Positions 2,862 through 62,245 of a DNA stretch of 64,000 nt are shown here, one piece after another. Below the pieces are notes generated by a model, which was not told the origin of the DNA, did not search any database, and saw only the letters and a program-made list of their open reading frames with translations. Position 1 is the first letter of the stretch, and each line of letters opens with the position of its first letter. Source of the DNA: a virus; IMG/VR virus record IMGVR_UViG_3300042540_001399, positions 226,888 through 290,887 of that record, one strand, 5' to 3'. Position numbers and translations under genes: made by a program.

Positions 2862-2893
2862 TAAAGTTTTTCAAAAAGTAAATAGTTTGATAA

Positions 2894-2900
2894 TATTTAT
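2894..2900 (+). promoter_or_regulatory. TATTTAT late-type element abutting a start codon
   Basis: The core ends only 4 nt before ATG 2905. If it works like a T4 late promoter, the transcript would be nearly leaderless. Confidence 0.45.
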
Positions 2901-2904
2901 TAAT

Positions 2905-4662
2905 ATGTCAAAATTGTCTAAAGTATCTTTTTTTATTTCGATAGTGATTATGTCAATTTATTTTGTGACACAATCTTTACTTGTGACAGGAAACATAAGT
3001 TATAGTAAAAATATCGGTTATGCTGGATATATATGTTTTTTACTTTTTGTATCTTTTTTTGGGATTTACATTTATGAATATTTGAAAAAAAACAAAAAAA
3101 TAAAAAAAAGAAGTGATTACGTTAAAAAATTAAATGAAACATTAATATATCAATCATTAAATTCTTCTTTTTTCGAAGGTAACACGTCAGAAGGCGCTAA
3201 AGTTCTAACTAAAGAAGTCAGTAATTCAATCAATGCTGACAGATGCTCAGTTTGGTTGTACAATACAGACAGAACTTCAATTATTTGTCAACAATTGTAT
3301 TCCAAAAAAACTGACAGCTGGGAACAAAATTATGAATTATTAAAAGAAGATTATAAACCTTATTTTTTATCTCTTTTATTAAATCCTATCATAGTTGCAA
3401 ATGATGCAAGAAATCATAGTGCAACATCATGTTTTAAAGACACTTATCTTGACCCATTGGGTATTAAATCTATGCTTGATGTTCCCATTTCCTACAAGGG
3501 AGACACTATTGGGGTAATATGTATTGAAAATTTTGATTTTAGAATTTGGGACCAAGTTGAAATTGATTTTGCTCAAATGTTATCAGCATTATATTCATTT
3601 GCATATTCAATAAAAGAAAATAATAATGTTAATAAGACAATTGATGATATTGAAGGATTTATAGATCATTCGGTATTAGTAAGTAAAACGGATTCTAAGG
3701 GTAAGATAGTTTATGTGAATAAAAAGTTTGAAGATGTTTCTGGTTGGAAACTTAGTCAGGTAATAGGAAAAGATCATAACATTGTTAATTCAGGAAAACA
3801 TACCAAAAATTTTTGGAAAGACATGTATAAAACAACAGTAGAAAAAAGAAAGATTTGGAACCAAATAGTTACAAATAAAACAAAAAAAGGTGAACTTTAT
3901 TGGGTTGATTCTTATATAATGGCAGAATTTGACGAACAAGATTGTTTAAAAGGGTTTATGTCTATAAGGTATGATGTTACAGATTTGATAAAAAAAACTG
4001 AAGAAATAGCGAAGAAAAATGTTTATTTGGAACATGCCGCAAAAATATTAAGACATGATATGCATTCAGGAATTAATACTTACATACCAAGAGGGATAAG
4101 TTCGTTAGAAAGAAGATTGAGTGATAACCAAATTCAAGAATATAAATTGGAAGCCCCTTTGAAAATGTTGAAAGAAGGTCTCAAACACGCTCAGAAAGTT
4201 TATAAAGGTGTTTATGAATTTACTAATTTAGTAAAAAAAGATTCAGTGCTCAACAAAACTAAAGTAAACTTAAAAGAAATATTAGAAAGTTACCTATCAA
4301 CAACATCATATAAATCACAAGTTGTAATTGATACTTTAGAAGACCATGAAGTTAATGAACCTTTATTTTGTACCGCCATCGATAATTTAATTAGAAATGG
4401 CCTCAAATATAATGACAATGATAACAAATTTGTACATTTATATATGGAAGATTTTCAGTTGGTAATTCAGGATAATGGAAGGGGGCTGTCACAAGAAGAA
4501 TTTGACAATTTATCGAAACCATACGTAAGAAAAGAAAACCAAAAAGAAAGTGGTAGTGGTTTAGGTTTAAATATATGTTTAGCAATACTCAAAGAACACG
4601 GATTCAGCGTTTCTTGTGAAAAAAACCATATAGGCACTAAAATTAAAATTAAATTCAAATGA
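2905..4662 (+). CDS. Membrane sensor histidine kinase with GAF and PAS domains
   Basis: Start set at ATG 2905 after the late-type element; an ATG at 2887 is upstream of it. Order: two membrane spans (residues about 7-26 and 39-58), a GAF-like domain (about 80-235), a PAS domain (about 245-370), a linker with the phosphoacceptor box RHDMHSGIN (H384), and a HATPase with N box NLIRNGLKYN, DNGRG and GSGLGLNI. The last 200 or so residues closely match the kinase at 5263. It opens a tightly packed operon with a secreted protein, the second kinase and a receiver protein. The kinase residues look intact. Sensor kinases of this size are exceptional in phages. Confidence 0.9.
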   Translation: MSKLSKVSFFISIVIMSIYFVTQSLLVTGNISYSKNIGYAGYICFLLFVSFFGIYIYEYLKKNKKIKKRSDYVKKLNETLIYQSLNSSFFEGNTSEGAKVLTKEVSNSINADRCSVWLYNTDRTSIICQQLYSKKTDSWEQNYELLKEDYKPYFLSLLLNPIIVANDARNHSATSCFKDTYLDPLGIKSMLDVPISYKGDTIGVICIENFDFRIWDQVEIDFAQMLSALYSFAYSIKENNNVNKTIDDIEGFIDHSVLVSKTDSKGKIVYVNKKFEDVSGWKLSQVIGKDHNIVNSGKHTKNFWKDMYKTTVEKRKIWNQIVTNKTKKGELYWVDSYIMAEFDEQDCLKGFMSIRYDVTDLIKKTEEIAKKNVYLEHAAKILRHDMHSGINTYIPRGISSLERRLSDNQIQEYKLEAPLKMLKEGLKHAQKVYKGVYEFTNLVKKDSVLNKTKVNLKEILESYLSTTSYKSQVVIDTLEDHEVNEPLFCTAIDNLIRNGLKYNDNDNKFVHLYMEDFQLVIQDNGRGLSQEEFDNLSKPYVRKENQKESGSGLGLNICLAILKEHGFSVSCEKNHIGTKIKIKFK

Positions 4663-5262: not shown

Positions 5263-6717
5263 ATGAAAAAAATAATTTTTATTCTTTTAATATTGTTTTC
5301 ATTCTACAATATAACAATCGCACAAGGACTTATCAAAAATAAAAAAGAAATTACCGAGTCTATGTGGGATCAAGGAGTGCCTGTCTTACCTGAAGATGAA
5401 TATATTTCATCTTTAATTGATAAAGTTGGATTCGATAACTTAAGACAAAGAAATAAAGCCGTTAACAAAGAAGAAGCTAAATTGTGTAGAGAAATTGGTA
5501 TTGCTTTTTACAATAGAGAAATGTATGAAGCTGCTGATTGGTATTTGGAAAGAGTACGAGGTTTTGTTGAAGTTGTTGAACTTGAACCTGAAATAGTTTT
5601 TGAAACTAAAAAAGAAGAAACCGAAGAACCTTCAGAAGATTTATCTGTGGAAGATTTGAAAAGTCTACAGTCAGACAAGGTTTTTTTACAAAACCTACCA
5701 AAAAGTTATGAAAATGTTTCACCTACAGATATGAAAAAATTGGCAGAAGAAATTGAAGGTCAAATAGAAAAACTTATTAAAGAAAAGGAAGAATTACTAA
5801 AAAGACACGCTCCTAAAGAAGTGATAGATGCTAAAGATGCGACTATAGGGTCATTAGGAAAAGAAAAAAAAATCATAGACCTATCAATAGATAAAGACAA
5901 ACTTAAAAATGAAACAAAAGTTTTGGGTATTGAAAAAAGAAATTTGAAATTTTATTTAAATTGGGCAATAGCTATAGGTTTGATATTAATATTAATAATA
6001 TTTGTTTTAATACAGAGAAAAACTATCAAAGGACAGGATAAAGAAATTGATAAACAACTAAATGACATAAATACTAAAAACACGTATTTAGAACATGCGG
6101 CAAGAATAATCAGACATGATATGCATTCTGGTATAAACACATATATTCCAAGGGGTATATCTTCTTTGGAAAAAAGGCTGACTGTCGACGACATGAAAAA
6201 TCTTAAGATCGAAGGTCCAATAAAGATGATTCGTGAAGGTTTAAATCACACCCAAAAAGTTTATAAAAATGTTTATGAATTTACAAATTTAGTTAAACAA
6301 AATGTTGTTTTAGAAAAAACCAAACAAAATATAAAAAATACTTTAGAACAGTTTTTTGTAAAAACATCATACTATAATCAAATCAAAATAAAGAATCTCC
6401 CGACTTTAGAAATTAATGAAGTTCTTTTTTGTGGGGCAATTGAAAACTTTGTGAAAAATGGTCTAAAATACAATAATAACGAAAATAAAGAAGTTTTAAT
6501 TTTTGAAGAAGATAATTATATAGTAGTACAAGATAATGGTATTGGTATGACATCAACTGAATTTGAAAAACAAATTAAAATAGTTTCTAAAGAAGATATT
6601 GGTGAAATCGGTTTAGGCTTAAATATTTCAATTGCCATTTTAAAAGAACACGGATTTAGTGTTGAATGTGAAAAAAATGAAATTGGAACTAAAATAAAAA
6701 TTAAATTTAAAAGTTAA
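5263..6717 (+). CDS. Second sensor histidine kinase, paralogue of the first
   Basis: A signal peptide (1-21) precedes a mostly acidic, helical extracytoplasmic region, a coiled coil (about 155-225), one membrane span (about 228-250, WAIAIGLILILIIFVLIQ) and a kinase core. The box RHDMHSGINTYIPRGISS (H285) is identical to that of the kinase at 2905. N box ENFVKNGLKYN, DNGIG and GLGLNI are present. It starts one base after the preceding stop. The differing sensor parts on a shared core suggest gene duplication followed by sensor exchange, so two inputs may converge on one receiver. Confidence 0.9.
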   Translation: MKKIIFILLILFSFYNITIAQGLIKNKKEITESMWDQGVPVLPEDEYISSLIDKVGFDNLRQRNKAVNKEEAKLCREIGIAFYNREMYEAADWYLERVRGFVEVVELEPEIVFETKKEETEEPSEDLSVEDLKSLQSDKVFLQNLPKSYENVSPTDMKKLAEEIEGQIEKLIKEKEELLKRHAPKEVIDAKDATIGSLGKEKKIIDLSIDKDKLKNETKVLGIEKRNLKFYLNWAIAIGLILILIIFVLIQRKTIKGQDKEIDKQLNDINTKNTYLEHAARIIRHDMHSGINTYIPRGISSLEKRLTVDDMKNLKIEGPIKMIREGLNHTQKVYKNVYEFTNLVKQNVVLEKTKQNIKNTLEQFFVKTSYYNQIKIKNLPTLEINEVLFCGAIENFVKNGLKYNNNENKEVLIFEEDNYIVVQDNGIGMTSTEFEKQIKIVSKEDIGEIGLGLNISIAILKEHGFSVECEKNEIGTKIKIKFKS

Positions 6718-10758: not shown

Positions 10759-12296
10759 TAAAATCATATATGAAAGGTTTATTAAATGAACATTTGACTA
10801 GAATAAGATCATTGATGTCTATCAATGAATCTTTAGTTGATGCATACCCAAAATTTTCGAAAAAAATATTTGATGAAGTAGACCCTACTTGGGGTGGTGG
10901 GCCAAATTCGCATTCATCAAGACACCCTGATGCATCCGGCAAAGATTGGTTTAGTAATAACGCATACGACATCATGGCACCTGAAGGGACACCAATATAT
11001 TCAATATCGGAAGGTTATGTTGATAAAATTACCGACAATCCACCAGGTTTAAGATCAGTTGGTGGTAAGAGAATTTATGGGGACAGTTTAACCATTAGAG
11101 GAACAGGGGGTGATCCCGATGTTTTCTACACACATGTAACAAAAATTGTTGTTGAAGAGGGACAATACGTTGATAGGGGTCAATTATTAGCATTCATAAT
11201 CAAAGGGGAGTTGGGTATACCTGAACACGTTCATGTTGCAGTAAAAGTTGGTGATGTGAAAGATTTCTTAGATGTTGATGGAAACATAAACAGAGTCAAT
11301 ATTGATTTAGTGGATAGACTAAAAATCTTACCAACAAACAAGGAACTTGAAGTGACAACCGACCCAAAAACAATAATGGGCGCTGCGGCCGGTCTTACCG
11401 CATCAGCTATAAGTTCTTTAAATATTAATAGACCTGAGTCTGACATCAGTGGCATTGCAACAAGATTCGGTATTAAAGATACTGATGTTAACATGGATTC
11501 GGTATCAGGTGTTTTGAATAAAATAATATTATCTTCTGAAGGTCTTGGTACTGATGAAACTGGAATTCATGATGCAATAAAGAAATTAAAAAGTTGTTAT
11601 GAACTTGATGAAATTAACAAAATTGTAGAAAGAAAAGAAATCGACGGAAAAAAATACAAAGACATTTATGATTATATAAATAGTGAAATGAATTATGGTG
11701 ATGAGCTGTTTGTAAAAAGTTTAGTAAAAACCATAAATAATATATGTCCTGATACCGTAACTGATAAAGGTACTCAAATAGTGAAAGTAACAAGATCATC
11801 ATCTTTAGGATCTGGAATCGATAGAGTCAGTCCTATAAAATTATTAAATGATCTAAAATCATATGGATTATCTGATAAGGCCGCCAAAGGTGTTGTTGCG
11901 AATGCTTTTGGTGAAAGTGGGTTTAACGTTAAGGCTAAAGGAGATTCTGGACCCAACGCCGAAAACAACACAAGATCAATAAATATAGATGGTAAAAAAT
12001 ACTGTTCGTTTGGATTGTGGCAATATAATGTCTGTGGTGGTATGGGGGTTTCTTATTTGAAGAACTATAATATAGATGTTGACAGATCAACAGACGCTGA
12101 AAAAATCAGGGTTCTATTTGATTATAATAAACAAATTGAATTTATGTCTAAAAGAATTAAAGAAGAACAATCCAAAAGCGAAAAAGATGTTAGAACATGG
12201 ATTGATTGGATTGTTGATAATGTAGAAAGACCATCAGATAGATACGGTGCAAAAATGAAAAGACAAGAATTTGCAAAACAACAAGGTTGGTCTTAA
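10755..12296 (+). CDS. M23-like and phage tail-lysozyme two-domain protein, 513 aa
   Basis: Residues 7-25 (KGLLNEHLTRIRSLMSINE) are the targeting-type peptide ending in I-N-E. Residues 50-165 are an M23/LytM-like fold with YDIMAPEGTPI, FYTHV and HVHVAV (H158, H160). The usual first zinc ligand (His of HxxxD) is N68 before D72, so this half may be inactive or rewired. The middle is unassigned. The C-terminal 140 residues resemble a tail lysozyme (GVVANAFGESGF, SFGLWQYN), with the Glu of GESGF as candidate catalytic residue. Probably a virion cell-wall-piercing protein. Confidence 0.75.
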   Translation: MIKSYMKGLLNEHLTRIRSLMSINESLVDAYPKFSKKIFDEVDPTWGGGPNSHSSRHPDASGKDWFSNNAYDIMAPEGTPIYSISEGYVDKITDNPPGLRSVGGKRIYGDSLTIRGTGGDPDVFYTHVTKIVVEEGQYVDRGQLLAFIIKGELGIPEHVHVAVKVGDVKDFLDVDGNINRVNIDLVDRLKILPTNKELEVTTDPKTIMGAAAGLTASAISSLNINRPESDISGIATRFGIKDTDVNMDSVSGVLNKIILSSEGLGTDETGIHDAIKKLKSCYELDEINKIVERKEIDGKKYKDIYDYINSEMNYGDELFVKSLVKTINNICPDTVTDKGTQIVKVTRSSSLGSGIDRVSPIKLLNDLKSYGLSDKAAKGVVANAFGESGFNVKAKGDSGPNAENNTRSINIDGKKYCSFGLWQYNVCGGMGVSYLKNYNIDVDRSTDAEKIRVLFDYNKQIEFMSKRIKEEQSKSEKDVRTWIDWIVDNVERPSDRYGAKMKRQEFAKQQGWS

Positions 12297-12330
12297 TTTT
12301 TTTTTAGTACCTATTGTTTTATAGTTTTAT

Positions 12331-12338
12331 TATTTATA
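12331..12338 (+). promoter_or_regulatory. TATTTATA late-type element
   Basis: The core ends 20 nt before ATG 12359. Confidence 0.45.
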
Positions 12339-12358
12339 TAATTAAAAAAAAAGAAAAA

Positions 12359-12502
12359 ATGGAAGATATCAATCAATTAGAAAATGAAATTTTTGCCTAC
12401 ATCAATGATAAAGGTCAAGAAGTTTTTACACCTAATTTTGAATTTGCGAACATCATGGCAAAAAAATATGGTACTTTAAAAGTTTTTGTACAAAAATTTT
12501 AA
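12359..12502 (+). CDS. Small unknown protein, 47 aa
   Basis: ATG 12359 follows an A-rich leader and a late-type core. The product is soluble, mixed charge, with no membrane span (start MEDINQLENEIF). A longer in-frame start at 12314 would begin before the promoter core. It ends 19 bases before the host-type promoter of the giant RNA. No family is recognised. Confidence 0.5.
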   Translation: MEDINQLENEIFAYINDKGQEVFTPNFEFANIMAKKYGTLKVFVQKF

Positions 12503-12521
12503 AAAAAAAATTACAAAGTAC

Positions 12522-12552
12522 TTGACAGATACAAATAAATGTAGTAACTTTG
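12522..12552 (+). promoter_or_regulatory. Host-type promoter of the giant RNA
   Basis: TTGAC (12522-12526) and TAACTTTG (12545-12552), with 20 bp between TTG and TAA, match the Bacteroidota TTG/TAnnTTTG consensus well. The predicted start is near 12557-12560, at the left edge of the long non-coding region. Confidence 0.8.
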
Positions 12553-12556
12553 TAAA

Positions 12557-13546
12557 ACAAATCAGGAAAAGACCTGAAACGTTCTTTGAAAAATAGATTA
12601 TCCGTTCAGGAAAAGTTTTGTCAGATTCTATGACAAGTAATTGGAATGAAATTTCCATCTTTGAATGATAAAGATATTGGGCCGTGTATAGTCCATAAAA
12701 TAAACTACGAAAGTAGGATAAAGTGAACCCTTAAGTGTGTTGGGTTTGCGGCTTCTTCGGGAGCTTGAGTACACAAGCGGGATACCATTTTGGCTTTAGT
12801 ATTGAGGGCAACGCTGTAAAGAATAAGGCAAAATGATTTGGCGATGTGGGTCGTCTGATTGAGGTGGGAACACCAATAGGAATAACCCGTAGGAATATTG
12901 CAAGACTCAAAGTCATCCAACTTTAATATTGCGTTTTCCAATATAATAGGTTACTTAAAACCAAGTGGAAGGACCACAAGGTAAGATGTAGAACGAGTGG
13001 TGTCGCTAACATCCTTCACTCAGGTTTACCAAAACCCGGTGATGAAGTAGTCTAAAAATATGGAGGTAGGGATATCTCACGGAGTAGTTGAGTATCGACT
13101 CGTTCAAAAGATGGGTTGGCTCGGTTGGCGGACCACTACTTCGACAATCCACGACACAAAACTTATGACTATTGAATTAAGTCCATTAATTAATACATTA
13201 AGGAAAAGTGTCCGTCAGGTTTGGATGAAAGGTGACTACATAGTAATGAGCCGTTCATTGCACACAGAGATCCCAAGTCGATGTGTAATTATCCGAAAAA
13301 CCTTTAGTCCCGCAAGGACGAGTTGGGAAGGCATTCTCGAAAAGAGTAGATTAGGATGAGAGTAATTCAAACCTTAAGGAGTGGTAAACCTAAAAGACCG
13401 TCACTGAGAAATACTTCTCAAAAGGAAGTGGATAAGAGTAGAAACAATAATGACTCTAAAGGTTCTCACACAAACGTGTAATCTCAGCGTTTTATTTTAA
13501 TGGAGCCACCGGTAAAGAACATTAGGGACTGATAGTCCCTTTTTTG
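12557..13546 (+). ncRNA. Giant structured non-coding RNA, about 990 nt (GOLLD/ROOL-class candidate)
   Basis: A 1,063-bp gap between coding genes, bounded by a host-type promoter and an intrinsic terminator. It is less A-rich than its neighbours and full of stems, with GC-rich closing pairs and stable tetraloops: GCTTC-TTCG-GGAGC near 12750, GGTG-GGAA-CACC near 12864, and GTCCC-GCAA-GGAC near 13308; TCAGG/CCTGA is the first hairpin (12563-12578). The only sizeable frame inside (13060-13359) has unlikely composition and no start context. Size, tetraloops, a phage genome and its tRNA content fit the large ornate RNAs GOLLD or ROOL, which are known from phages and fold into large multimeric assemblies. 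Family membership is inferred, not shown. Confidence 0.8.
13524..13545 (+). terminator. Intrinsic terminator of the giant RNA
   Basis: AGGGACT (13524-13530), loop GAT, AGTCCCT (13534-13540), then TTTTT. Confidence 0.9.
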
Positions 13547-13554
13547 TTTTATAA

Positions 13555-13562
13555 TATTTATA
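13555..13562 (+). promoter_or_regulatory. TATTTATA late-type element abutting a start codon
   Basis: The core ends 3 nt before ATG 13566, right after the giant-RNA terminator. Confidence 0.45.
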
Positions 13563-13565
13563 TAT

Positions 13566-13775
13566 ATGACAACAATTCACGAAGTCCAACAAGTTCTAAC
13601 AGTAAACACTCCTTTTGGCGAAGCTCAAGTTTTATTTATTATTGATTATGGAATCCATAGAAATTCAATATGGGTATGTTCATCATTTGATGATGGTAAA
13701 ATAAGACATTTTGATACCAATCAGATATCTGTTACAATAAATCATACATTAAATTTCAATATGAAAGATAAATAA
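13566..13775 (+). CDS. Small unknown protein, 69 aa
   Basis: A compact beta-rich product (VQQVLTVNTPFGEAQVLFII ... RNSIWVCSSFDDGKIRHF) without signal peptide or membrane span. The alternating hydrophobic pattern suggests a small barrel. No family is recognised. It is the first gene after the giant RNA and has its own late-type promoter, so it is probably not co-transcribed with the RNA. Confidence 0.6.
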   Translation: MTTIHEVQQVLTVNTPFGEAQVLFIIDYGIHRNSIWVCSSFDDGKIRHFDTNQISVTINHTLNFNMKDK

Positions 13776-13797
13776 TTGCTTTTTCTGATTTATCATA

Positions 13798-13804
13798 TAT
13801 TTAT
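13798..13804 (+). promoter_or_regulatory. TATTTAT late-type element
   Basis: The core ends 44 nt before ATG 13849, with an A-rich leader between. Confidence 0.45.
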
Positions 13805-13848
13805 TATTAAAAATATAATAAAATAATAAAAAAAACAAAATTAAAATT

Positions 13849-14310
13849 ATGAAAAGAATTGTTAGATTAACTGAGTCAGATCTTACTAGAATAGTAAGAA
13901 GAGTTATTAGCGAACAAACAAAACCATCGGCTAAGGATTATTTTGTCAACGAAAATCAAACTTCAATGCCAGGAGGGACAAACTTTTTTGCCGTAACTTC
14001 GGTTGGAGCTCCTACACCAATTAAAGATGGAAATTACAAAAGTTTCCAAGTAACTGTTTCAGGTGTCCAATATTATAAAAGTACTAGTGGTGAAGGATGG
14101 AAAAAAACAAGAAATTTTACAGAAAAACTACAACACAGATGTGGAGCTAAAGCTAACTTTTGGGCCGCAGAGTGGAATGGTGGTATTCCTGAAGTAGATA
14201 CGGGTTCTGCGGGATATGTATCAAAAATGGGAGGTGGATTAGAGTCGACTTCAAATACGTACTGTAATTCAAAAGGAGCTAAGAACCAATCAAGTATTGG
14301 ACTTATGTAA
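13849..14310 (+). CDS. Probable head-targeted protein, 153 aa
   Basis: Residues 1-22 (MKRIVRLTESDLTRIVRRVI, then SE) are the clearest copy of the amphipathic targeting peptide, ending I-S-E before Q, which fits an (I/L)-x-E prohead-protease site. The rest is a small Gly/Lys-rich domain with two Cys and conserved Trp, unassigned. A strong terminator follows. It is probably an internal virion protein injected with the DNA, by analogy with T4 internal proteins. Confidence 0.7.
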   Translation: MKRIVRLTESDLTRIVRRVISEQTKPSAKDYFVNENQTSMPGGTNFFAVTSVGAPTPIKDGNYKSFQVTVSGVQYYKSTSGEGWKKTRNFTEKLQHRCGAKANFWAAEWNGGIPEVDTGSAGYVSKMGGGLESTSNTYCNSKGAKNQSSIGLM

Positions 14311-14332
14311 TCAAAATACAAACAAATAAAAA

Positions 14333-14357
14333 AACCCTCAATTGAGGGTTTTTTTAT
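14333..14357 (+). terminator. Intrinsic terminator
   Basis: AACCCTCA/TGAGGGTT (14333-14350) followed by T7. The mirrored A-run upstream lets it also serve the convergent minus-strand gene ending at 14378. Confidence 0.88.
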
Positions 14358-14377
14358 TTTATTAATATAGTTCTTGA

Positions 14378-14929
14378 TTATTTGTCAAAAACATTTGTAT
14401 CACTATCGGTGAACATTTCATTAAAATCCCTAGTATCTACAGAATATACCCCTTTGTAGTCATCACCATCCTTCCAAATAATTTGTAACTTAGGGTAGTT
14501 AGGATTATCTTTCAAATTGATGATCATTAATTTTTCTGTAATATCATTGTAATACCCTGTTTTATCTGTTACTGAAAAAAATGCAAAATCGGCGTTAGAT
14601 TTAATCATTTTAATATCTAAAGTGTATGTTTTATCAACGATAGAGTCATTTTGGTCGTAATCATAAAAATGATGACTTAATACGTTTTTATCAAAATCAA
14701 AAGTATAAATTTGAAATCCTTCAGTGATAGAATCACTAATTTTATTTTTGAATGAACCTACAGACATTGGGAAATCGGTATAATCAATCTGTTTTGTTGA
14801 ATTAACAAAGATTTGTTTGGTCCCATCCAAAGGTTGTGATTTTGTCCCTGTGAATACTTCTTTAGTAACAAAAGATGAAAAAAGTACTATTGATAAAAGT
14901 ACGAAGATGGATTTGAAGATTGTTTTCAT
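14378..14929 (-). CDS. Exported unknown protein with its own host-type promoter, 183 aa
   Basis: A signal peptide (residues 1-22, KSIFVLLSIVLFSSFVTKE) precedes a beta-rich domain with repeated Asp-Tyr-Asp motifs (FYDYDQND). There is no lipobox Cys. The gene is transcribed against its neighbours from a TTG-N19-TATATTTG promoter and shares a bidirectional terminator. That layout is typical of a moron, a phage cargo gene expressed from a host promoter. It may act at the cell surface, for example in exclusion of other phages. Function unknown. Confidence 0.75.
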   Translation of the reverse strand: MKTIFKSIFVLLSIVLFSSFVTKEVFTGTKSQPLDGTKQIFVNSTKQIDYTDFPMSVGSFKNKISDSITEGFQIYTFDFDKNVLSHHFYDYDQNDSIVDKTYTLDIKMIKSNADFAFFSVTDKTGYYNDITEKLMIINLKDNPNYPKLQIIWKDGDDYKGVYSVDTRDFNEMFTDSDTNVFDK

Positions 14930-14966
14930 GGGTTTTTATTTTTTAGTTATTAAATTATTAATAATA

Positions 14967-14996
14967 CAAATATATGTGGTTTTTTTTAATTTACAA
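14967..14996 (-). promoter_or_regulatory. Host-type promoter, minus strand
   Basis: On the minus strand TTG (14996-14994), 19 bp, TATATTTG (14974-14967). It points at the exported protein whose start is at 14929. Confidence 0.7.
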
Positions 14997-15023
14997 ACAC
15001 AAAATTTGTTTTTTTTCTTTTTT

Positions 15024-15043
15024 CCCCATCAAATATGATGGGG
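15024..15043. other. GC-rich hairpin beyond the tmRNA 3' end
   Basis: CCCCATCA-AATA-TGATGGGG, an 8-bp stem 8 nt beyond the tmRNA CCA. On the minus strand it is followed by A's rather than T's, so it is not a standard terminator. It may act in 3'-end processing. Confidence 0.5.
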
Positions 15044-15051
15044 ATTTCAGA

Positions 15052-15442
15052 TGGTGGAGGCGGAGGGACTCGAACCCTCGTCCATAATATCCTGTCAGAT
15101 AAGGACTACATGTTTAGGTTGATATTTTCTAATATCCCAAAATAGTTGATTTGTTCTTCACCATCGTAAATCAACAACCAATGGTCCCGAATCGGATTTA
15201 GAGAGCCATCCGGTGTGCTCTATCAAACTACGACTTCTGTTGCTAGGTTATATGTCTGCCGACCCCCCGTTTCCGTAAACTTCTTAAGCTACAGTAACTT
15301 CAGAACCTCTTACTAATCCAAGAGTTTCCATTTTGTTTAGCACATTGCCAGTTGTTTTCTAAGTCAGTTTTTAAAGAGATTAACTCAGTCCCTACATGCC
15401 CTTATTCTTCAGCCAATACCTGTCAAATCCAAAAACGCCCCC
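15052..15442 (-). ncRNA. ssrA: tmRNA (transfer-messenger RNA)
   Basis: Read on the minus strand, the 5' end GGGGGCG (15442-15436) pairs with CGCCTCC near the 3' end. It is followed by the tmRNA hallmark TTTTTGGATTTGACAGG. The 3' end has a perfect T arm GAGGG-TTCGAGT-CCCTC, discriminator A and encoded CCA (15054-15052). The 391-nt length is typical. A tag frame can be read ending V-T-V-A-stop (stop 15286-15284). If the resume codon is GGC at 15349, the tag is 21 residues. It rescues stalled ribosomes and tags their products for proteases such as ClpXP. Both a host-type promoter and a late-type element lie upstream. Confidence 0.93.
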
Positions 15443-15463
15443 ATATTTTCAATGAACTTTTAA

Positions 15464-15471
15464 TATAAATA
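15464..15471 (-). promoter_or_regulatory. TATTTATA late-type element for the tmRNA, minus strand
   Basis: It lies 21 nt upstream of the mature tmRNA 5' end and downstream of the host-type promoter, so the tmRNA could be made in both early and late infection. Confidence 0.45.
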
Positions 15472-15480
15472 TTATAAGTA

Positions 15481-15511
15481 CAAATATAAGTACTATTTTA
15501 ATTATATCCAA
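15481..15511 (-). promoter_or_regulatory. Host-type promoter of the tmRNA, minus strand
   Basis: On the minus strand TTG (15511-15509), 20 bp, TATATTTG (15488-15481). Predicted start about 30 nt before the mature tmRNA 5' end. Confidence 0.7.
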
Positions 15512-15520
15512 ATTTGGGTA

Positions 15521-15527
15521 TATTTAT
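15521..15527 (+). promoter_or_regulatory. TATTTAT late-type element
   Basis: The core ends 7 nt before ATG 15535. Confidence 0.45.
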
Positions 15528-15534
15528 TTTTAAG

Positions 15535-16614
15535 ATGTCTGAACACAGTGAAATATACGATTTTTTGAAAAAAGTTTCCAAAGGTGACACATCATTTATG
15601 CCATATAGTAGATGGAATTTACCTTACCCAATTTATGATATAAAGTATAACAGCCAATCACCAGCGTCAAGTGTTATTTGGATTGAATTTGAAAATACCG
15701 AAAAATATTTAAATGCCTTAGGGATCGATGATGATGAAGATATATTTGTTTGGAATAGATTTATGGAAAATTACTATTATGACGATTATGATTACTACCG
15801 TTATGAAGAAGATTGGAAAGAAGGTTATATTATAAAAGATTTCAATCCTGAAAACATCCGATTAGTTGAAAATATACTTATGTTATCTAATCCTTCATTA
15901 AGTCTAGATATTAATAATGATGAAAGTTGTTCTAATGTTTCCTTGTATTTGTCAAGAAGATTTGATGATATTGATTACATTATTAGTGAATTTGGTAATC
16001 TAAATGAAGATTGTAAACGAAGAGCGGTAGTTGACGTTTTAGATAATGAAACTAAAAATCCATTTCGTAAATTTGGTATCACTGAAATTTATAAAAGACA
16101 CAGATTCAAAACTACTGTTAATGTGTTATTACATTGGTATAACGTAATTGACAATAAAGAATTAGACCTAATTGAATTATTACAAGAACTACTGAAAAAA
16201 TTTGATAATGAAAGTAGAGGTAATTGGTATGAGTTAGAATATAATGTTTGGTGTGATGATTTTGACAATGAATCGTTTCAAAAGGAAACAAAAAGAAACT
16301 TAGAAAAAATTATAGAAAATTTGGAAGAAAGTATTGAAGGAAAGGTTGATCTTGAAACAATAAATTCCTTATATAATAAAGTCATAAGTTTGGGTGGGTT
16401 TGGTAGATGGATTAATATTAAAGAAAAGAAAGCTGAAGTTAACTTTAGAGATTTGGATACTAAAAAAGGGATACTAAAATTTTACTATAGAAGCCCACAA
16501 ACCGGAAAGGCAACTGAAGAAAGGTCTGTCAAAAATTTGGAAGAACTCAACTTATCACTTTATCAACCTGAGCTTTTTGAGCATGTAAAAAAAATCAAGA
16601 AAATTATATTGTAA
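15535..16614 (+). CDS. Acidic unknown protein, 359 aa
   Basis: ATG 15535 chosen because it follows the late-type core; a TTG start at 15514 would lie before it. The product is very acidic and Tyr/Asp-rich (a YYYDDYDYYRYEEDW stretch near residue 80), soluble, with predicted helices in the second half. No catalytic motif or known family is seen. Strong negative charge recalls DNA-mimic or scaffold-like phage proteins, but this is only a composition argument. Confidence 0.65.
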   Translation: MSEHSEIYDFLKKVSKGDTSFMPYSRWNLPYPIYDIKYNSQSPASSVIWIEFENTEKYLNALGIDDDEDIFVWNRFMENYYYDDYDYYRYEEDWKEGYIIKDFNPENIRLVENILMLSNPSLSLDINNDESCSNVSLYLSRRFDDIDYIISEFGNLNEDCKRRAVVDVLDNETKNPFRKFGITEIYKRHRFKTTVNVLLHWYNVIDNKELDLIELLQELLKKFDNESRGNWYELEYNVWCDDFDNESFQKETKRNLEKIIENLEESIEGKVDLETINSLYNKVISLGGFGRWINIKEKKAEVNFRDLDTKKGILKFYYRSPQTGKATEERSVKNLEELNLSLYQPELFEHVKKIKKIIL

Positions 16615-17430: not shown

Positions 17431-17457
17431 AAAGGAGGACTTTTAATCCTCCTTTTT
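17431..17457. terminator. Bidirectional terminator
   Basis: AAAGGAGGA (17431-17439), loop CTTTTAA, TCCTCCTTT (17447-17455). T-runs follow on both strands. The stop codon of the minus-strand ClpC-like gene (17445-17443) sits in the loop. Confidence 0.85.
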
Positions 17458-19503
17458 CTTTCTACCTTTTTTCTTGGGTTCAGGTTTAGATCTATCTTCT
17501 ATACTTATTGTTTGTGTTTCTCCTTCTCCCTCAACAAATAACATATAATCAGTTCCTTCGACAACTTCGTTTGTTAGAATTTTTTCAGAAATAAGATCTT
17601 CTATTTTATCTTGTATTGCTCTTTTTATTGGTCTTGCACCATATTGGTCATCAAACCCAACTTTTGATATGAAATCAATGACAGAATTTTCATATGAAAC
17701 TTTGTATTTCATAGATGATAATCTAGAAATGAGTTTATCAATTTCTAATTTAACAATTTTATCTATGTGATCTTTTTTAAGTGAATTAAAAATAATAACG
17801 TCATCAATTCTATTTAAAAATTCAGGTGCAAAAAACTTACTTAATTCTTTTTTAAGAATGTCTCTTTTATATTCTTCTTGGATTGCATCACTATTATTAT
17901 TTGTTTTAAAACCAACACCACTACCAAAATCCTGTAATTTCTTTACCCCAATATTTGATGTCATAATTATTAGGCAATTTTTGAAATTTATTTTTCTGCC
18001 TAATCCGTCAGTTAAATGGCCATCATCCAACAATTGAAGTAATGTGGAAAAAACATCTTTATTTGCCTTTTCAATTTCATCAAACAAAATTACAGAATAA
18101 GGTTTGTTCTTTACTTGCTCTGTTAATTGACCCCCTTCTTCATGACCAACGTATCCTGGTGGTGATCCTATCAAACGTGAAATGGTATGTTTTTCTTGAA
18201 ACTCACTCATATCTACCCTAATTAAACTATCTTCACTACCAAATATTTCTTTTGCCAATTGTTTTGCTAAAAAAGTTTTACCAACACCTGTTGATCCTAA
18301 AAATATAAAAGAACCAATTGGTCTATTTGGATCTTTTATACCTACCCTATTTCTTCTTATAGATTTAGAAATTTTACCTACAGCTTCTTCCTGTCCAATT
18401 ACATTTTTATTTAATGTTGTTTCAAGATTGACTAAAGAATTTTTTTCATCAATGTTTATTTTACTAACAGGAATTTTAGTCATGTTGGACACAACTTCGT
18501 AAATTAGTTCTTCAGGTATACCCCTTTTACTATTTTTAAGGTCTTCTTCAAATTTCTTTTTTTCTTCTTCAAGTTTTAAGAGAATACTTCTTTCACGATC
18601 CCTAAGTTCTGCCGCTTGTTCATAATTTTGTTTTTTTATGACATTAAGTTTTTCTTGTTTAATTTCTTGGGCTTCTATTTTCAATTTTTCAATTGACTCG
18701 GGTAGTTTAATATCTATTTGCATTCGTGACCCAACCTCATCTAAAATATCAAAAGCTTTATCTGGAAATTCCCGATCGGTAATATATCTATCCGCTAGCT
18801 CAACACATAACCAAAGTGAATCATCAGTGTAATTAACTTTGTGATGTTCTTCATACTTCGATTTACTTTGTTTCAGAATTTCAAAAGTTTCTTCTTTTGT
18901 TGATGGATCTACAATAATTTTTTGAAACCGTCTTTCTAAAGCCCCATCTTTTTCGAAATGTTTTCTATACTCATCTAAAGTGGTTGCTCCAATACACTGT
19001 ATTTCACCTCTTGAAAGTGCTGGTTTAAATATGTTTGATGCATCCAAAGAACCCGAGCTATTACCGGCACCAACCATAGTGTGAATTTCGTCGATAAAAA
19101 GAATAATGTTAGGCGTGTTTTGAAGTTCTTCTATTATAACTTTCATTCTTTCTTCAAACTGACCTCTATATTTTGTTCCAGCAACAATAGAATTTATATC
19201 TAAGGAAACTATCCTTTTATCTACTAAATTTTTTGGACAATCGCCACTATAAATCATCATTGCCAAACCTTCTGCAATTGCCGTTTTACCTGCACCTGGT
19301 TCTCCAATAATAATAGGATTATTTTTCTTTCTTCTTGAAAGAACTTGAGCAATCCTAAAAATTTCTTTTTCTCTACCAATTACTGGATCTAATTTACCTT
19401 GTTCGGCAAGTTTAATTAAATCTTTACTAAAATTGTCTAAAACAGGCGTTCCACCATCTGTCTTTTTTTTGTTTTTTTCATTATCATCTACAAAATCTAA
19501 CAT
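17443..19503 (-). CDS. clpC: ClpC-like AAA+ unfoldase lacking the N domain, 686 aa
   Basis: Two AAA+ modules: Walker A GEPGAGKT (67-74) with Walker B ILFIDEIH, and Walker A GSTGVGKT (about 400) with Walker B VILFDEIEKA. Between them, near residue 290, is a UVR-type motif (YEQAAELRDRER), diagnostic of ClpC over ClpA or ClpB. A V-G-F tripeptide near residue 527 fits the loop that docks on ClpP. The protein starts almost directly at the first AAA module, so the roughly 150-residue adaptor-binding N domain is missing. It probably redirects host ClpP. The UVR protein starting at 19663 on the other strand is a likely partner. Confidence 0.92.
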   Translation of the reverse strand: MLDFVDDNEKNKKKTDGGTPVLDNFSKDLIKLAEQGKLDPVIGREKEIFRIAQVLSRRKKNNPIIIGEPGAGKTAIAEGLAMMIYSGDCPKNLVDKRIVSLDINSIVAGTKYRGQFEERMKVIIEELQNTPNIILFIDEIHTMVGAGNSSGSLDASNIFKPALSRGEIQCIGATTLDEYRKHFEKDGALERRFQKIIVDPSTKEETFEILKQSKSKYEEHHKVNYTDDSLWLCVELADRYITDREFPDKAFDILDEVGSRMQIDIKLPESIEKLKIEAQEIKQEKLNVIKKQNYEQAAELRDRERSILLKLEEEKKKFEEDLKNSKRGIPEELIYEVVSNMTKIPVSKINIDEKNSLVNLETTLNKNVIGQEEAVGKISKSIRRNRVGIKDPNRPIGSFIFLGSTGVGKTFLAKQLAKEIFGSEDSLIRVDMSEFQEKHTISRLIGSPPGYVGHEEGGQLTEQVKNKPYSVILFDEIEKANKDVFSTLLQLLDDGHLTDGLGRKINFKNCLIIMTSNIGVKKLQDFGSGVGFKTNNNSDAIQEEYKRDILKKELSKFFAPEFLNRIDDVIIFNSLKKDHIDKIVKLEIDKLISRLSSMKYKVSYENSVIDFISKVGFDDQYGARPIKRAIQDKIEDLISEKILTNEVVEGTDYMLFVEGEGETQTISIEDRSKPEPKKKGRKKKED

Positions 19504-59368: not shown

Positions 59369-62245
59369 ATGGCAGAGCAAAATATTAATCAATATGTGTT
59401 TCAAAAGTACAAAATCAATACTGTTTATGATTCTATGGACATGTCATTGGCTTCAGATGAAAGAAACTATAATGAAGAAGTAATATTTTCACCATACCTA
59501 ATTGCTGAAACTTATGGTAATAAATTACCAATAAACATAGATATCAATAACCCTTTAACATCTCAATGGCTCACATTAACTTATAAAAATTTTAATCCTA
59601 ACAACGTTTTTGTTTCACAAAACTATTACAATCCAGAAAATAAAGATTTAGGGTGTTTTTCATCAAGCACATTGTGTGATGTGGGTCTTACAGGTATTGA
59701 TAATGGTCTTGTTAATAAAATGACAGGTGAAACCTTAAATTATACGGAAGGCTTATATGACGACTATTTAAAATTTAATAGGTTGTATTTCGATAGAAGA
59801 ATGAAAATGTTTCAAGTAACAGGATACACAGAATCATATAATCGATTTTCAGGCATACCAAAAAATACACTCTATGAGATTGTAAGCAAAGAAAACATAC
59901 AATATGGTAAATATCACGAATTGTATGGTGGATTTTATCAAGGATTTTATAAGTTATTTGGATTTGATTATGAAGTTTTACCCGAAAGAATGTCTAAAGG
60001 TTGGTCGGTTGAAATGTTATTGAAACCTAGATTTGTTAATGAATATAACCCACTACCCTCAGAAACAACTTTAAATCAAATTTACCCACAAAATAAAAAC
60101 ACATTTTTTTATTTTGGTACAAGGGCTGAAAACAAGTTTTATCACCACGCGGATGGACACCCAAGTTGTTTGACTGGTTATACAAGAGTTACAGAAAAAC
60201 TTAGTGGTTGTCCATCGACATGTTCTTGTTGTGATAAAACAATAACAAACAGTCGATGTATATATGTTTATCCACCAAGGTCTTTGAATGATAAGCACGA
60301 CCCACATATAAATTACGGTTGTGACAAATGTAAAGGTGACAGAAAAATATCCGTAAGTTGTGGTTGTGGTTGTGAAGAAAAACCGTGTCAAATATGTGGT
60401 TGGGAATGTCAAACACACAAATGTGAAACAGTAATTTTACCAACACCAACTCCGACACCAACCCCAACACCTACTCCTGTATGTGAAATACCAACACCAA
60501 TATGTACACCAAGTTGTACAAAATGTGATAGTTGTGATGAATGTACAACATGTGAAACAACGGGTTTTACATCTATTGAGTACACTTGTGAAACAGATCC
60601 ACTTTTTGATGTTATGTCAAATAACATAGCTTTCAAATTGTGTGGCGATGTAAAAAACCCACAGATAGGGGTAAAAGTTTTAAGATTTACGGGTGGTTGT
60701 GAAACAACAGGAACATGTGTTACAGGTCAAACTTATATGACTGGTTATACAATAGAAGAATTTTGTACGCCACCTATATACCCATATTGTGAAATTGTAA
60801 ATCCTGATTTTCTTAATTATGAGCATTGGTTTTTAGTAAATGTAGTATGGGAAAGATATTCTTGGTATGACTTTTGCGATCTCAAATTTTTTGGTGGTTT
60901 AGGGGATATTACAAAATTTGAATATTTGGAATCTTTGGCTAATAATGCGGTTGAACTTATTCGTCCGCCATTGACTCATAATGATAAAAATGGTGACACT
61001 ATAGAATTAGTTAATTTGAACAAGACTTGGTTGGATGATAAAAAATATAGACTTGGTAGACTAAAAATTTATGTTAACGGAAAAAAAATATATACAAAAG
61101 AAAACTTTGAAGAAGTAATACCAAGAGGATTATTTACGGACAAAGAAAAACAAATAGGAGTTCCATTCAACATTTCATGGGGTGGTGGTACTCAGGGATT
61201 ACATGAAAACTTAACGTTTTCATCTTGTTCGGCACTTACTTCAAATTATATTCAGGATCCGGAGTGTCTTCCTAATAATATTTTGAGTGGTACATCATTA
61301 TCATCTTTAACCACTAACATTCTATTGGAACAAAACTTTGGTGGGACATTTGAAGGTGCCATATCACAATTTAGAATGTATATTGAACCATTGACTTCAG
61401 ATGAAGTAAAACACAATTTTAATTTACTAAAGTATAAATTTAATCTTTTTGATCCGAATTGCCCTGATTGTGATACAACAAAATGTTTACCTAATGACTT
61501 AACTTATAACATAAATGACAACATACTTACCACTACAACAACTTTTATTCCTAACCCAACGACAATACCTTTTAAGCTAGGTAGGTATTACAAAATGGAT
61601 GGTCGTGACTTGAACTTTTTAATTAAAAATAATTTATCAAAAATAACATCTTTGATTGGGATTAAAACAAATCAAAATTTAAATAGCAAATATTGGGACG
61701 ACAATGGTTGGTGGGGGAATCAAGGGAACACACCTCAATGTGTTGGTTACTCTTGGGCTCATTGGTTAGAAGATGGACCTGTAAGTCAGTCAGGAATACC
61801 ACCAATTATAAAACCAAATGATATTTATATTAACGCACAAAAATTGGATCAATGGGTTGGTGAAAACTATGATGGTACATCAGTTAGGGGTGGGGTAAAA
61901 TATTTAAAAAAAATTGGTAAAGTACAATCTTATTTTTGGGCGTTTGACCTAAACACTTTGATTGACACAGTTTTTAAATATGGACCTGTTGTCGTAGGTA
62001 CTAATTGGTATTCTAACATGTTTTACCCAACTAAAACTGGTATGATTAAAGTTGGTGGTAAACTAGTTGGTGGTCATGCTTACGTTGTTAATGGTGTTGA
62101 TAAAAAAAATAAAACTTTTAGGATAAAAAATAGTTGGGGTAAGTCTTGGGGTAAAAATGGTAGTGCAACAATATCATTTGCCGATATGTCAAGACTAATA
62201 AAAGAAAACGGAGAAATTTGTTTGGCTATAGAAATAGGTAGTTAA
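59369..62245 (+). CDS. Large adhesin-like protein with C-terminal papain-like protease, 958 aa
   Basis: No signal peptide, so probably virion-borne. Residues about 1-260 are an Asn/Tyr-rich beta domain. Residues about 265-410 are Cys-rich (over 25 Cys in CxxC-like pairs) split by a Pro-Thr linker. Residues about 480-690 contain a LamG/concanavalin-like module (GGTFEGAISQFRMYIEPLTS). The last 170 residues are a C1 papain-like domain: C near 791 (PQCVGYSWAHWL), H near 903 (GGHAYVVNGVD) and N near 920 (IKNSWGKSWG). It may bind and degrade host surface proteins during adsorption. Confidence 0.85.
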   Translation: MAEQNINQYVFQKYKINTVYDSMDMSLASDERNYNEEVIFSPYLIAETYGNKLPINIDINNPLTSQWLTLTYKNFNPNNVFVSQNYYNPENKDLGCFSSSTLCDVGLTGIDNGLVNKMTGETLNYTEGLYDDYLKFNRLYFDRRMKMFQVTGYTESYNRFSGIPKNTLYEIVSKENIQYGKYHELYGGFYQGFYKLFGFDYEVLPERMSKGWSVEMLLKPRFVNEYNPLPSETTLNQIYPQNKNTFFYFGTRAENKFYHHADGHPSCLTGYTRVTEKLSGCPSTCSCCDKTITNSRCIYVYPPRSLNDKHDPHINYGCDKCKGDRKISVSCGCGCEEKPCQICGWECQTHKCETVILPTPTPTPTPTPTPVCEIPTPICTPSCTKCDSCDECTTCETTGFTSIEYTCETDPLFDVMSNNIAFKLCGDVKNPQIGVKVLRFTGGCETTGTCVTGQTYMTGYTIEEFCTPPIYPYCEIVNPDFLNYEHWFLVNVVWERYSWYDFCDLKFFGGLGDITKFEYLESLANNAVELIRPPLTHNDKNGDTIELVNLNKTWLDDKKYRLGRLKIYVNGKKIYTKENFEEVIPRGLFTDKEKQIGVPFNISWGGGTQGLHENLTFSSCSALTSNYIQDPECLPNNILSGTSLSSLTTNILLEQNFGGTFEGAISQFRMYIEPLTSDEVKHNFNLLKYKFNLFDPNCPDCDTTKCLPNDLTYNINDNILTTTTTFIPNPTTIPFKLGRYYKMDGRDLNFLIKNNLSKITSLIGIKTNQNLNSKYWDDNGWWGNQGNTPQCVGYSWAHWLEDGPVSQSGIPPIIKPNDIYINAQKLDQWVGENYDGTSVRGGVKYLKKIGKVQSYFWAFDLNTLIDTVFKYGPVVVGTNWYSNMFYPTKTGMIKVGGKLVGGHAYVVNGVDKKNKTFRIKNSWGKSWGKNGSATISFADMSRLIKENGEICLAIEIGS
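60441..60480 (+). repeat. Pro-Thr linker repeat
   Basis: (CCAACACC)-type repeat encoding T-P-T-P units within the 958-aa protein, joining two Cys-rich parts. Confidence 0.8.

What the first reader, a model, noticed from the sequence alone, without database searches (positions are those of the whole stretch)
12522..13546. About 990-nt structured non-coding RNA with its own host-type promoter and terminator
Seen: a 1,063-bp gene-free interval, a TTG-N20-TAACTTTG promoter at its left edge, a perfect intrinsic terminator at its right edge, and UUCG, GGAA and GCAA tetraloops on GC-rich stems inside. Known: only a few bacterial or phage RNAs reach this size (GOLLD, ROOL, OLE, HEARO); GOLLD and ROOL occur in phages and often near tRNAs, and form large multimers. 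Inference: this is a new member or a distinct class, expressed by host polymerase. It is the leading candidate for the exciting system.
Basis: partly seen in the sequence, partly recalled or inferred. Interest (0 to 1): 0.95.

Follow-up and report, generated by a model that had tools for sequence, protein, structure and literature searches.

The report
GOLLD RNA with rRNA-style antitermination leader
This stretch of a giant bacteriophage genome makes GOLLD, an already known large RNA that assembles into hollow cages; what looks new is that in this phage group its gene starts like a ribosomal-RNA gene and usually lies beside a phage tmRNA gene, which gives a handle on GOLLD's unknown function.

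Summary
In detail: 12522-13546 is one long structured RNA gene with a Bacteroidota-type promoter and an intrinsic terminator. The 'new class' reading is wrong. The 3' half (13080-13490) is GOLLD: Rfam RF02032, full model, 320 bits, E = 8e-91. ROOL, OLE and HEARO give no match. The 5' half, outside the Rfam model, is the usual GOLLD 5' domain: 36 homologues show 112 base pairs, 80 with compensatory changes, and a model of part of it matches many other phage GOLLDs. The published inter-subunit contact between L20 and the linker probably covaries here too, so I expect a cage.

Two things seem unreported. (1) Between promoter and RNA body lies GTTCTTTGA, usually behind a small hairpin. It is in 44 of 49 non-redundant relatives (0.3 expected), although the leader around it is variable. 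It is the boxA-like motif I found in Bacteroidota 16S rRNA leaders, so GOLLD is probably transcribed with the host NusB/NusE antitermination complex. (2) GOLLD phages of this group carry a tmRNA (11 of 12 records), within 4 kb of GOLLD in 9 of 11; these tmRNAs also have boxA (9 of 11), whereas host tmRNAs rarely do (1-2 of 20). GOLLD's function remains inferred.

The parts
12522..12552 (+). Bacteroidota-type promoter, -33 TTG (12522-12524), N20, -7 TAACTTTG (12545-12552); expected transcription start about 12558-12560
   Evidence: promoter columns conserved in the 51-homologue alignment
12562..12577 (+). small leader hairpin TCAGG-AAAAGA-CCTGA, boxB-like position just 5' of boxA; stem sequence changes with pairing kept in relatives
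12581..12589 (+). boxA-like element GTTCTTTGA (proposed NusB/NusE antitermination site)
   Evidence: 44 of 49 non-redundant GOLLDs of this type versus 0.33 expected; same motif in Bacteroidota 16S leaders, 68 of 112 for GTTC[AT]TTGA versus 0.7 expected
12590..12667 (+). variable leader between boxA and the conserved RNA body
   Evidence: low conservation, length changes
12668..13079 (+). GOLLD 5' domain (the cap in the published cage), not covered by the Rfam model
   Evidence: 36 homologues, 112 pairs, 80 with compensatory change, 97.2% of cells paired versus 85.7% shuffled and 35-41% slid; sub-model 12773-12893 matches other GOLLDs
13080..13490 (+). GOLLD 3' domain (RF02032, model 1-416)
   Evidence: 320 bits, E 7.8e-91; alignment
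13202..13203 (+). linker dinucleotide GG that pairs with L20; probable inter-subunit bridge B7
   Evidence: GG/CC in 42 and GC/GC in 9 homologues, always complementary
13273..13274 (+). loop L20 dinucleotide CC, partner of 13202-13203
13232..13236 (+). 5' side of a long-range (pseudoknot) helix with 13400-13404
   Evidence: compensatory changes in several pairs
13309..13317 (+). loop L21a region CCCGCAAGG with palindromic GC, probable self-kissing bridge B8
   Evidence: GC in all 47 homologues with the loop
13400..13404 (+). 3' side of the long-range helix with 13232-13236
13524..13546 (+). intrinsic terminator (7-bp stem, T6)
15052..15442 (-). neighbouring phage tmRNA gene, convergent with GOLLD; boxA-like GTTCATTGAA starts 15 nt before its 5' end (about 15449-15457) and a TTG-N20-TATATTTG promoter begins at 15511
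   Evidence: RF00023, 114 bits

Best explanation
The interval is a monocistronic GOLLD RNA gene of a 291-kb-class phage of Bacteroidota. Host RNA polymerase starts at a housekeeping-type promoter. The nascent leader presents a hairpin and a boxA, on which host NusB/NusE (S10) assembles the rRNA-type antitermination complex. This lets polymerase cross about 900 nt of untranslated, highly structured RNA without Rho termination and may help it fold. Transcription ends at the intrinsic terminator. The RNA folds into a 5' and a 3' domain and, as shown for another GOLLD, probably assembles into a 14-subunit hollow cage. Because the same phages put boxA on a tmRNA next to GOLLD and inside their tRNA array, GOLLD most likely belongs to a phage set of stable RNAs that acts on translation late in infection; my best guess is that the cage holds or captures translation components (tRNA, tmRNA or ribosome parts). 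Shown: identity as GOLLD, promoter, terminator, covarying structure, boxA motif and its conservation, tmRNA linkage. Inferred: Nus factor binding, cage formation of this member, role in translation.
For: Rfam hit. 5' domain covariation and detection in other GOLLDs. Long-range and L20/linker covariation. Internal ORFs not conserved. Promoter. boxA in 44 of 49 against 0.33 expected, and the commonest 9-mer even within divergent leaders. Same motif in Bacteroidota 16S leaders. In the own record the motif is not enriched overall (14 matches, 11 for the reversed control), yet 5 of the 14 sit directly before structured RNAs: two in the tRNA array, one before an RNA upstream of tRNA-Met, GOLLD and tmRNA. 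tmRNA in 11 of 12 GOLLD records, within 0.13-3.8 kb in 9 of 11. boxA in 9 of 11 phage tmRNA leaders versus 1-2 of 20 host ones. No RNA polymerase beta, NusB or NusG found in the record, so host factors must serve. Cage, ribosome pull-down and rise at lysis for other GOLLDs: PMC12286853.
Against: No transcript, Nus binding or particle has been measured here. The host phylum is inferred from promoter, boxA and a distant terminase match to Flavobacterium phages among others (27% identity). boxA is absent from the Acinetobacter and Lactobacillales-type GOLLDs examined, so it is a clade feature, not a GOLLD-defining one. Neither hairpin nor terminator is universal: some leaders have only 16-18 nt between the -7 box and boxA, and a terminator was found in 34 of 50. 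The homologues are related, so the counts are not independent events.
Confidence: 0.8

Rival explanations
1. It is GOLLD, but GTTCTTTGA is not an antitermination site; it is a processing or other signal that rRNA leaders and phage RNAs happen to share.
For: In phage tmRNAs the motif lies only 14-31 nt before the mature 5' end, where a processing signal would also lie. NusB/NusE binding in Bacteroidota was not tested.
Against: The motif closely matches boxA as defined in gammaproteobacteria (GYTCTTTAANA, PMC5725501), differing by G for A at one position. It lies between promoter and RNA body in rRNA leaders and GOLLD, at very variable distance from the body, which fits a co-transcriptional signal better than a cleavage site.
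Confidence: 0.2
2. It is a distinct, new class of large RNA, or a ROOL, OLE or HEARO RNA.
For: Only the 3' half is covered by the Rfam GOLLD model.
Against: GOLLD at 320 bits and none of the other families at gathering threshold. The 5' half is shared with other GOLLDs, including an Acinetobacter phage and the 634-kb phage LR745206.
Confidence: 0.01
3. The interval is really a coding region or several unrelated short transcripts.
For: A 99-aa ORF and antisense ORFs exist.
Against: Not kept open or in frame in homologues; long-range pairs span the whole body.
Confidence: 0.01
4. The cage is not linked to translation: tRNA, tmRNA and GOLLD are neighbours only because stable RNA genes collect in one neutral region of phage genomes.
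For: The record has a 22-tRNA array about 11 kb upstream; in 2 of 11 records tmRNA and GOLLD lie about 77 kb or more apart.
Against: Shared boxA leaders, and tmRNA specifically within 4 kb in 9 of 11; published ribosome pull-down of GOLLD (PMC12286853).
Confidence: 0.4

Closest known systems
GOLLD RNA (Rfam RF02032; cryo-EM 14-mer of GOLLD env-38, PMC12286853)
   Same: Full 3' model match at 320 bits; two-domain layout, conserved 3' and more variable 5'; phage location near tRNAs; linker-L20 complementarity and palindromic GC in the L21a position.
   Different: Bacteroidota promoter plus rRNA-type boxA leader; tmRNA neighbour; no tRNA inside the linker of this member.
Bacterial rRNA operon leader (promoter, boxB/boxA, NusB-NusE antitermination)
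   Same: Order promoter, hairpin, boxA, structured RNA, terminator; same GTTCTTTGA motif as Bacteroidota 16S leaders; tandem promoters in some relatives (L062, L101, L060).
   Different: Drives a single phage ncRNA; Nus binding unproven; no boxC examined.
ROOL RNA (octameric phage RNA cage)
   Same: Works alike in outline: phage RNA-only cage near tRNAs (PMC12286853).
   Different: Unrelated sequence and structure; no ROOL match in the window.

Membership tests
GOLLD (RF02032) | Conserved 3' domain above the curated gathering score (150 bits) | tested here: met
   320 bits over model positions 1-416
GOLLD (RF02032) | Less conserved 5' domain upstream of the 3' domain | tested here: met
   112-pair covarying 5' structure; sub-model matches many other phage GOLLDs but not the Lactobacillales-prophage type
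GOLLD (RF02032) | Complementarity between L20 and the linker (inter-subunit bridge B7) | tested here: met
   13202-13203 with 13273-13274: GG/CC in 42, GC/GC in 9; assignment to B7 is by position, not by structure
GOLLD (RF02032) | Palindromic dinucleotide in self-kissing loop L21a (bridge B8) | tested here: met
   GC in 47 of 47 homologues with the loop; conserved, so no covariation test was possible
GOLLD (RF02032) | Homo-oligomeric cage (14-mer) | not testable with these tools
   needs cryo-EM or mass photometry
GOLLD (RF02032) | Phage or prophage location, often near tRNAs | tested here: met
   virus record of 290,887 bp; 22 tRNAs in an array ending about 11 kb upstream
boxA antitermination leader | boxA sequence between promoter and structured RNA, as in host rRNA leaders | tested here: met
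boxA antitermination leader | NusB/NusE binding and Rho resistance | not testable with these tools
   needs binding and transcription assays
ROOL, OLE, HEARO | Match to the family covariance model | tested here: not met
   no match at gathering threshold in the window, nor up to E = 1 in 11400-15600

The most novel reading that the evidence does not exclude
Large Bacteroidota phages run a stable-RNA regulon: GOLLD, a phage tmRNA and tRNA arrays are all fitted with the host's rRNA boxA, so that host Nus complexes transcribe them like ribosomal RNA. GOLLD cages and the unusual phage tmRNA work together on ribosomes late in infection.
Probability: 0.35. Interest if true: 0.8.

Novelty: new member of a known kind. 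Interest (0 to 1): 0.55.

Why it matters
GOLLD forms one of the largest known RNA-only cages and has no known function. An rRNA-type boxA shared by GOLLD, tmRNA and tRNA genes of the same phages suggests how a phage gets a 1-kb untranslated RNA made in quantity, ties GOLLD to translation, and gives simple experiments: mutate boxA, delete GOLLD or the tmRNA, look for cargo. It also gives a sequence signature for finding more phage structured RNAs, and about fifty diverse full-length GOLLDs for structural covariation.

Tried and rejected
Distinct RNA class or ROOL/OLE/HEARO: rejected. Coding potential: rejected. A universal GOLLD boxA: rejected, none in Acinetobacter or Lactobacillales-type loci. 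Close named relatives in annotated phages: only 66-75% identity over parts of the 3' domain, in Acinetobacter phages and LR745206. Phage-encoded RNA polymerase beta, NusB, NusG, ClpP and SmpB: not found in the record. Single-sequence folding is weakly informative (z = -2.3). First attempt to locate host tmRNA starts by motif failed and was replaced by model coordinates. In the leader clustering my end anchor cut off the motif in L073 and L109, which do carry it. Papers holding both GOLLD and boxA: none in the library; this covers open-access text only.

Full report
What is there. The interval 12503-13565 has no conserved gene. It holds a Bacteroidota -33/-7 promoter at 12522-12552, a variable leader, a conserved RNA body from about 12668 to 13493, and an intrinsic terminator at 13524-13546. 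The window is positions 226888-290887 of a 290,887-bp virus record.

Identity. Rfam places 13080-13490 in GOLLD (RF02032) at 320 bits over the full model. There is one GOLLD in the record. A pattern from the conserved 3' end found 115 stretches in IMG/VR, and a protein search with the downstream ORF found 17 loci. From these I took 51 distinct full-length sequences (the window and 50 homologues, 60-84% identical to it). The 5' half, which Rfam does not model, aligns in 36 non-redundant sequences. RNAalifold gives 112 pairs, 80 with changes on both sides that keep the pair. 97.2% of cells are paired, against 85.7% in shuffles and 35-41% when partners are slid by 1-3 columns. A covariance model of 12773-12893 matches at or next to the expected place in distant GOLLDs, including LR745206 (E 7e-33) and an Acinetobacter phage (E 8e-5), but not in the Lactobacillales-prophage type. 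So the 5' half is a standard phage GOLLD 5' domain.

Long-range contacts. An unbiased mutual-information scan recovers the Rfam helices and adds three contacts: 13129-13132 with 13211-13214, 13232-13236 with 13400-13404, and 13203 with 13273. The last joins the linker and loop L20. Its dinucleotides are GG/CC in 42 and GC/GC in 9 sequences, always complementary. By position this corresponds to the L20 kissing contact that the cryo-EM structure showed to be inter-subunit bridge B7 (PMC12286853); the assignment is mine, since the env-38 sequence was not at hand. The L21a position keeps its palindromic GC in all 47 sequences that have the loop.

The leader. In the homologues the leader varies in length and sequence, but GTTCTTTGA recurs 16-60 nt behind the -7 box in most and further in L063, usually after a small hairpin whose stem changes with pairing kept. 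It is in 44 of 49 non-redundant loci of this type against 0.33 expected from a first-order model. It is the commonest 9-mer among leaders that are under 65% alike once the motif is removed. The same motif is the second commonest 9-mer in 112 Bacteroidota 16S leaders; GTTC[AT]TTGA is in 68 of them against 0.7 expected. It closely resembles boxA, known in gammaproteobacteria as GYTCTTTAANA and bound by NusB/NusE (PMC5725501). More distant GOLLDs with boxA also carry TAnnTTTG elements; Acinetobacter and Lactobacillales-type GOLLDs do not have boxA.

The genome. GTTCWTTGA occurs 14 times in the record, about as often as its reversed control (11). Five of the 14 lie directly before structured RNAs: between tRNA-Thr and tRNA-Gln, before tRNA-Leu, in a promoter-hairpin-boxA unit upstream of tRNA-Met, before GOLLD, and before tmRNA. 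The record has no detectable RNA polymerase beta, NusB or NusG, so host factors are the likely users.

The tmRNA. Of 12 GOLLD-bearing phage records examined, 11 encode a tmRNA. In 9 of these it lies 0.13-3.8 kb from GOLLD; in two it is about 77 kb or more away. GTTC[AT]TT[GAT]A lies 14-31 nt before the tmRNA in 9 of 11 phage genes but within 15 nt in only one of 20 host Bacteroidota genes, and within 120 nt in two. Relatedness among these phages means the counts are not independent events.

Function. Cage formation, ribosome pull-down and a rise at lysis are published for other GOLLDs. Here the company GOLLD keeps (tRNAs, tmRNA, shared boxA) favours a role in translation, but this is inference. 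I put GOLLD identity at about 0.98, boxA as an antitermination site at about 0.75, cage formation of this member at about 0.8, and a translation-related role at about 0.5.

Novelty. The RNA is a new member of a known family. To my knowledge, and within the open-access library searched (the five papers holding both GOLLD and tmRNA were listed, not read in full), the boxA leader and the tmRNA linkage have not been reported.

Noticed in passing
window 15052-15442 (-); L264-L274: Phage tmRNAs (the window's is missed by ARAGORN) appear to encode conserved tags of about 20 residues ending in VTVA, AVA, VAA or YAA (for example GNVLNKMETLGLVRGSEVTVA in the window), apparently longer than usual tags; no phage SmpB or ClpP was found in the record.
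   Followed up: partly
window 17443-19503 (-): ClpA/ClpC-like double-AAA unfoldase (phrog_4871, Pfam AAA_2 and ClpB_D2-small) 2 kb beyond the tmRNA; possibly linked with the unusual tag.
   Followed up: partly
L256:10890-11110 (record about 225889-226109): Promoter, long hairpin and boxA before an unannotated RNA, followed by tRNA-like sequences and tRNA-Met; looks like a second stable-RNA unit of the tRNA array.
   Followed up: partly
L256:7735-8290 and 11110-12460: Several tRNA-like sequences with odd arms or long inserts between the recognised tRNAs, not called by ARAGORN or Rfam.
   Followed up: no
L127-L136: Relatives that carry the downstream ORF (homologue of 13566-13775) but no GOLLD beside it; G005 (L132) has its GOLLD elsewhere, next to its tmRNA, so the GOLLD gene appears to move.
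   Followed up: partly
L062, L101, L060, L072, L077: Tandem copies of the promoter, in some with the leader, upstream of GOLLD, reminiscent of rRNA P1/P2 promoters.
   Followed up: no
window 2887-4662 and 5263-6717 (+): Two phage proteins with histidine-kinase-type ATPase domains (GAF/PAS/HATPase_c in the first), unusual cargo for a phage.
   Followed up: no
window 59369-62245 (+): 958-aa protein with a C-terminal papain-like cysteine protease region (41% identity to Xanthomonas phage XacN1).
   Followed up: no
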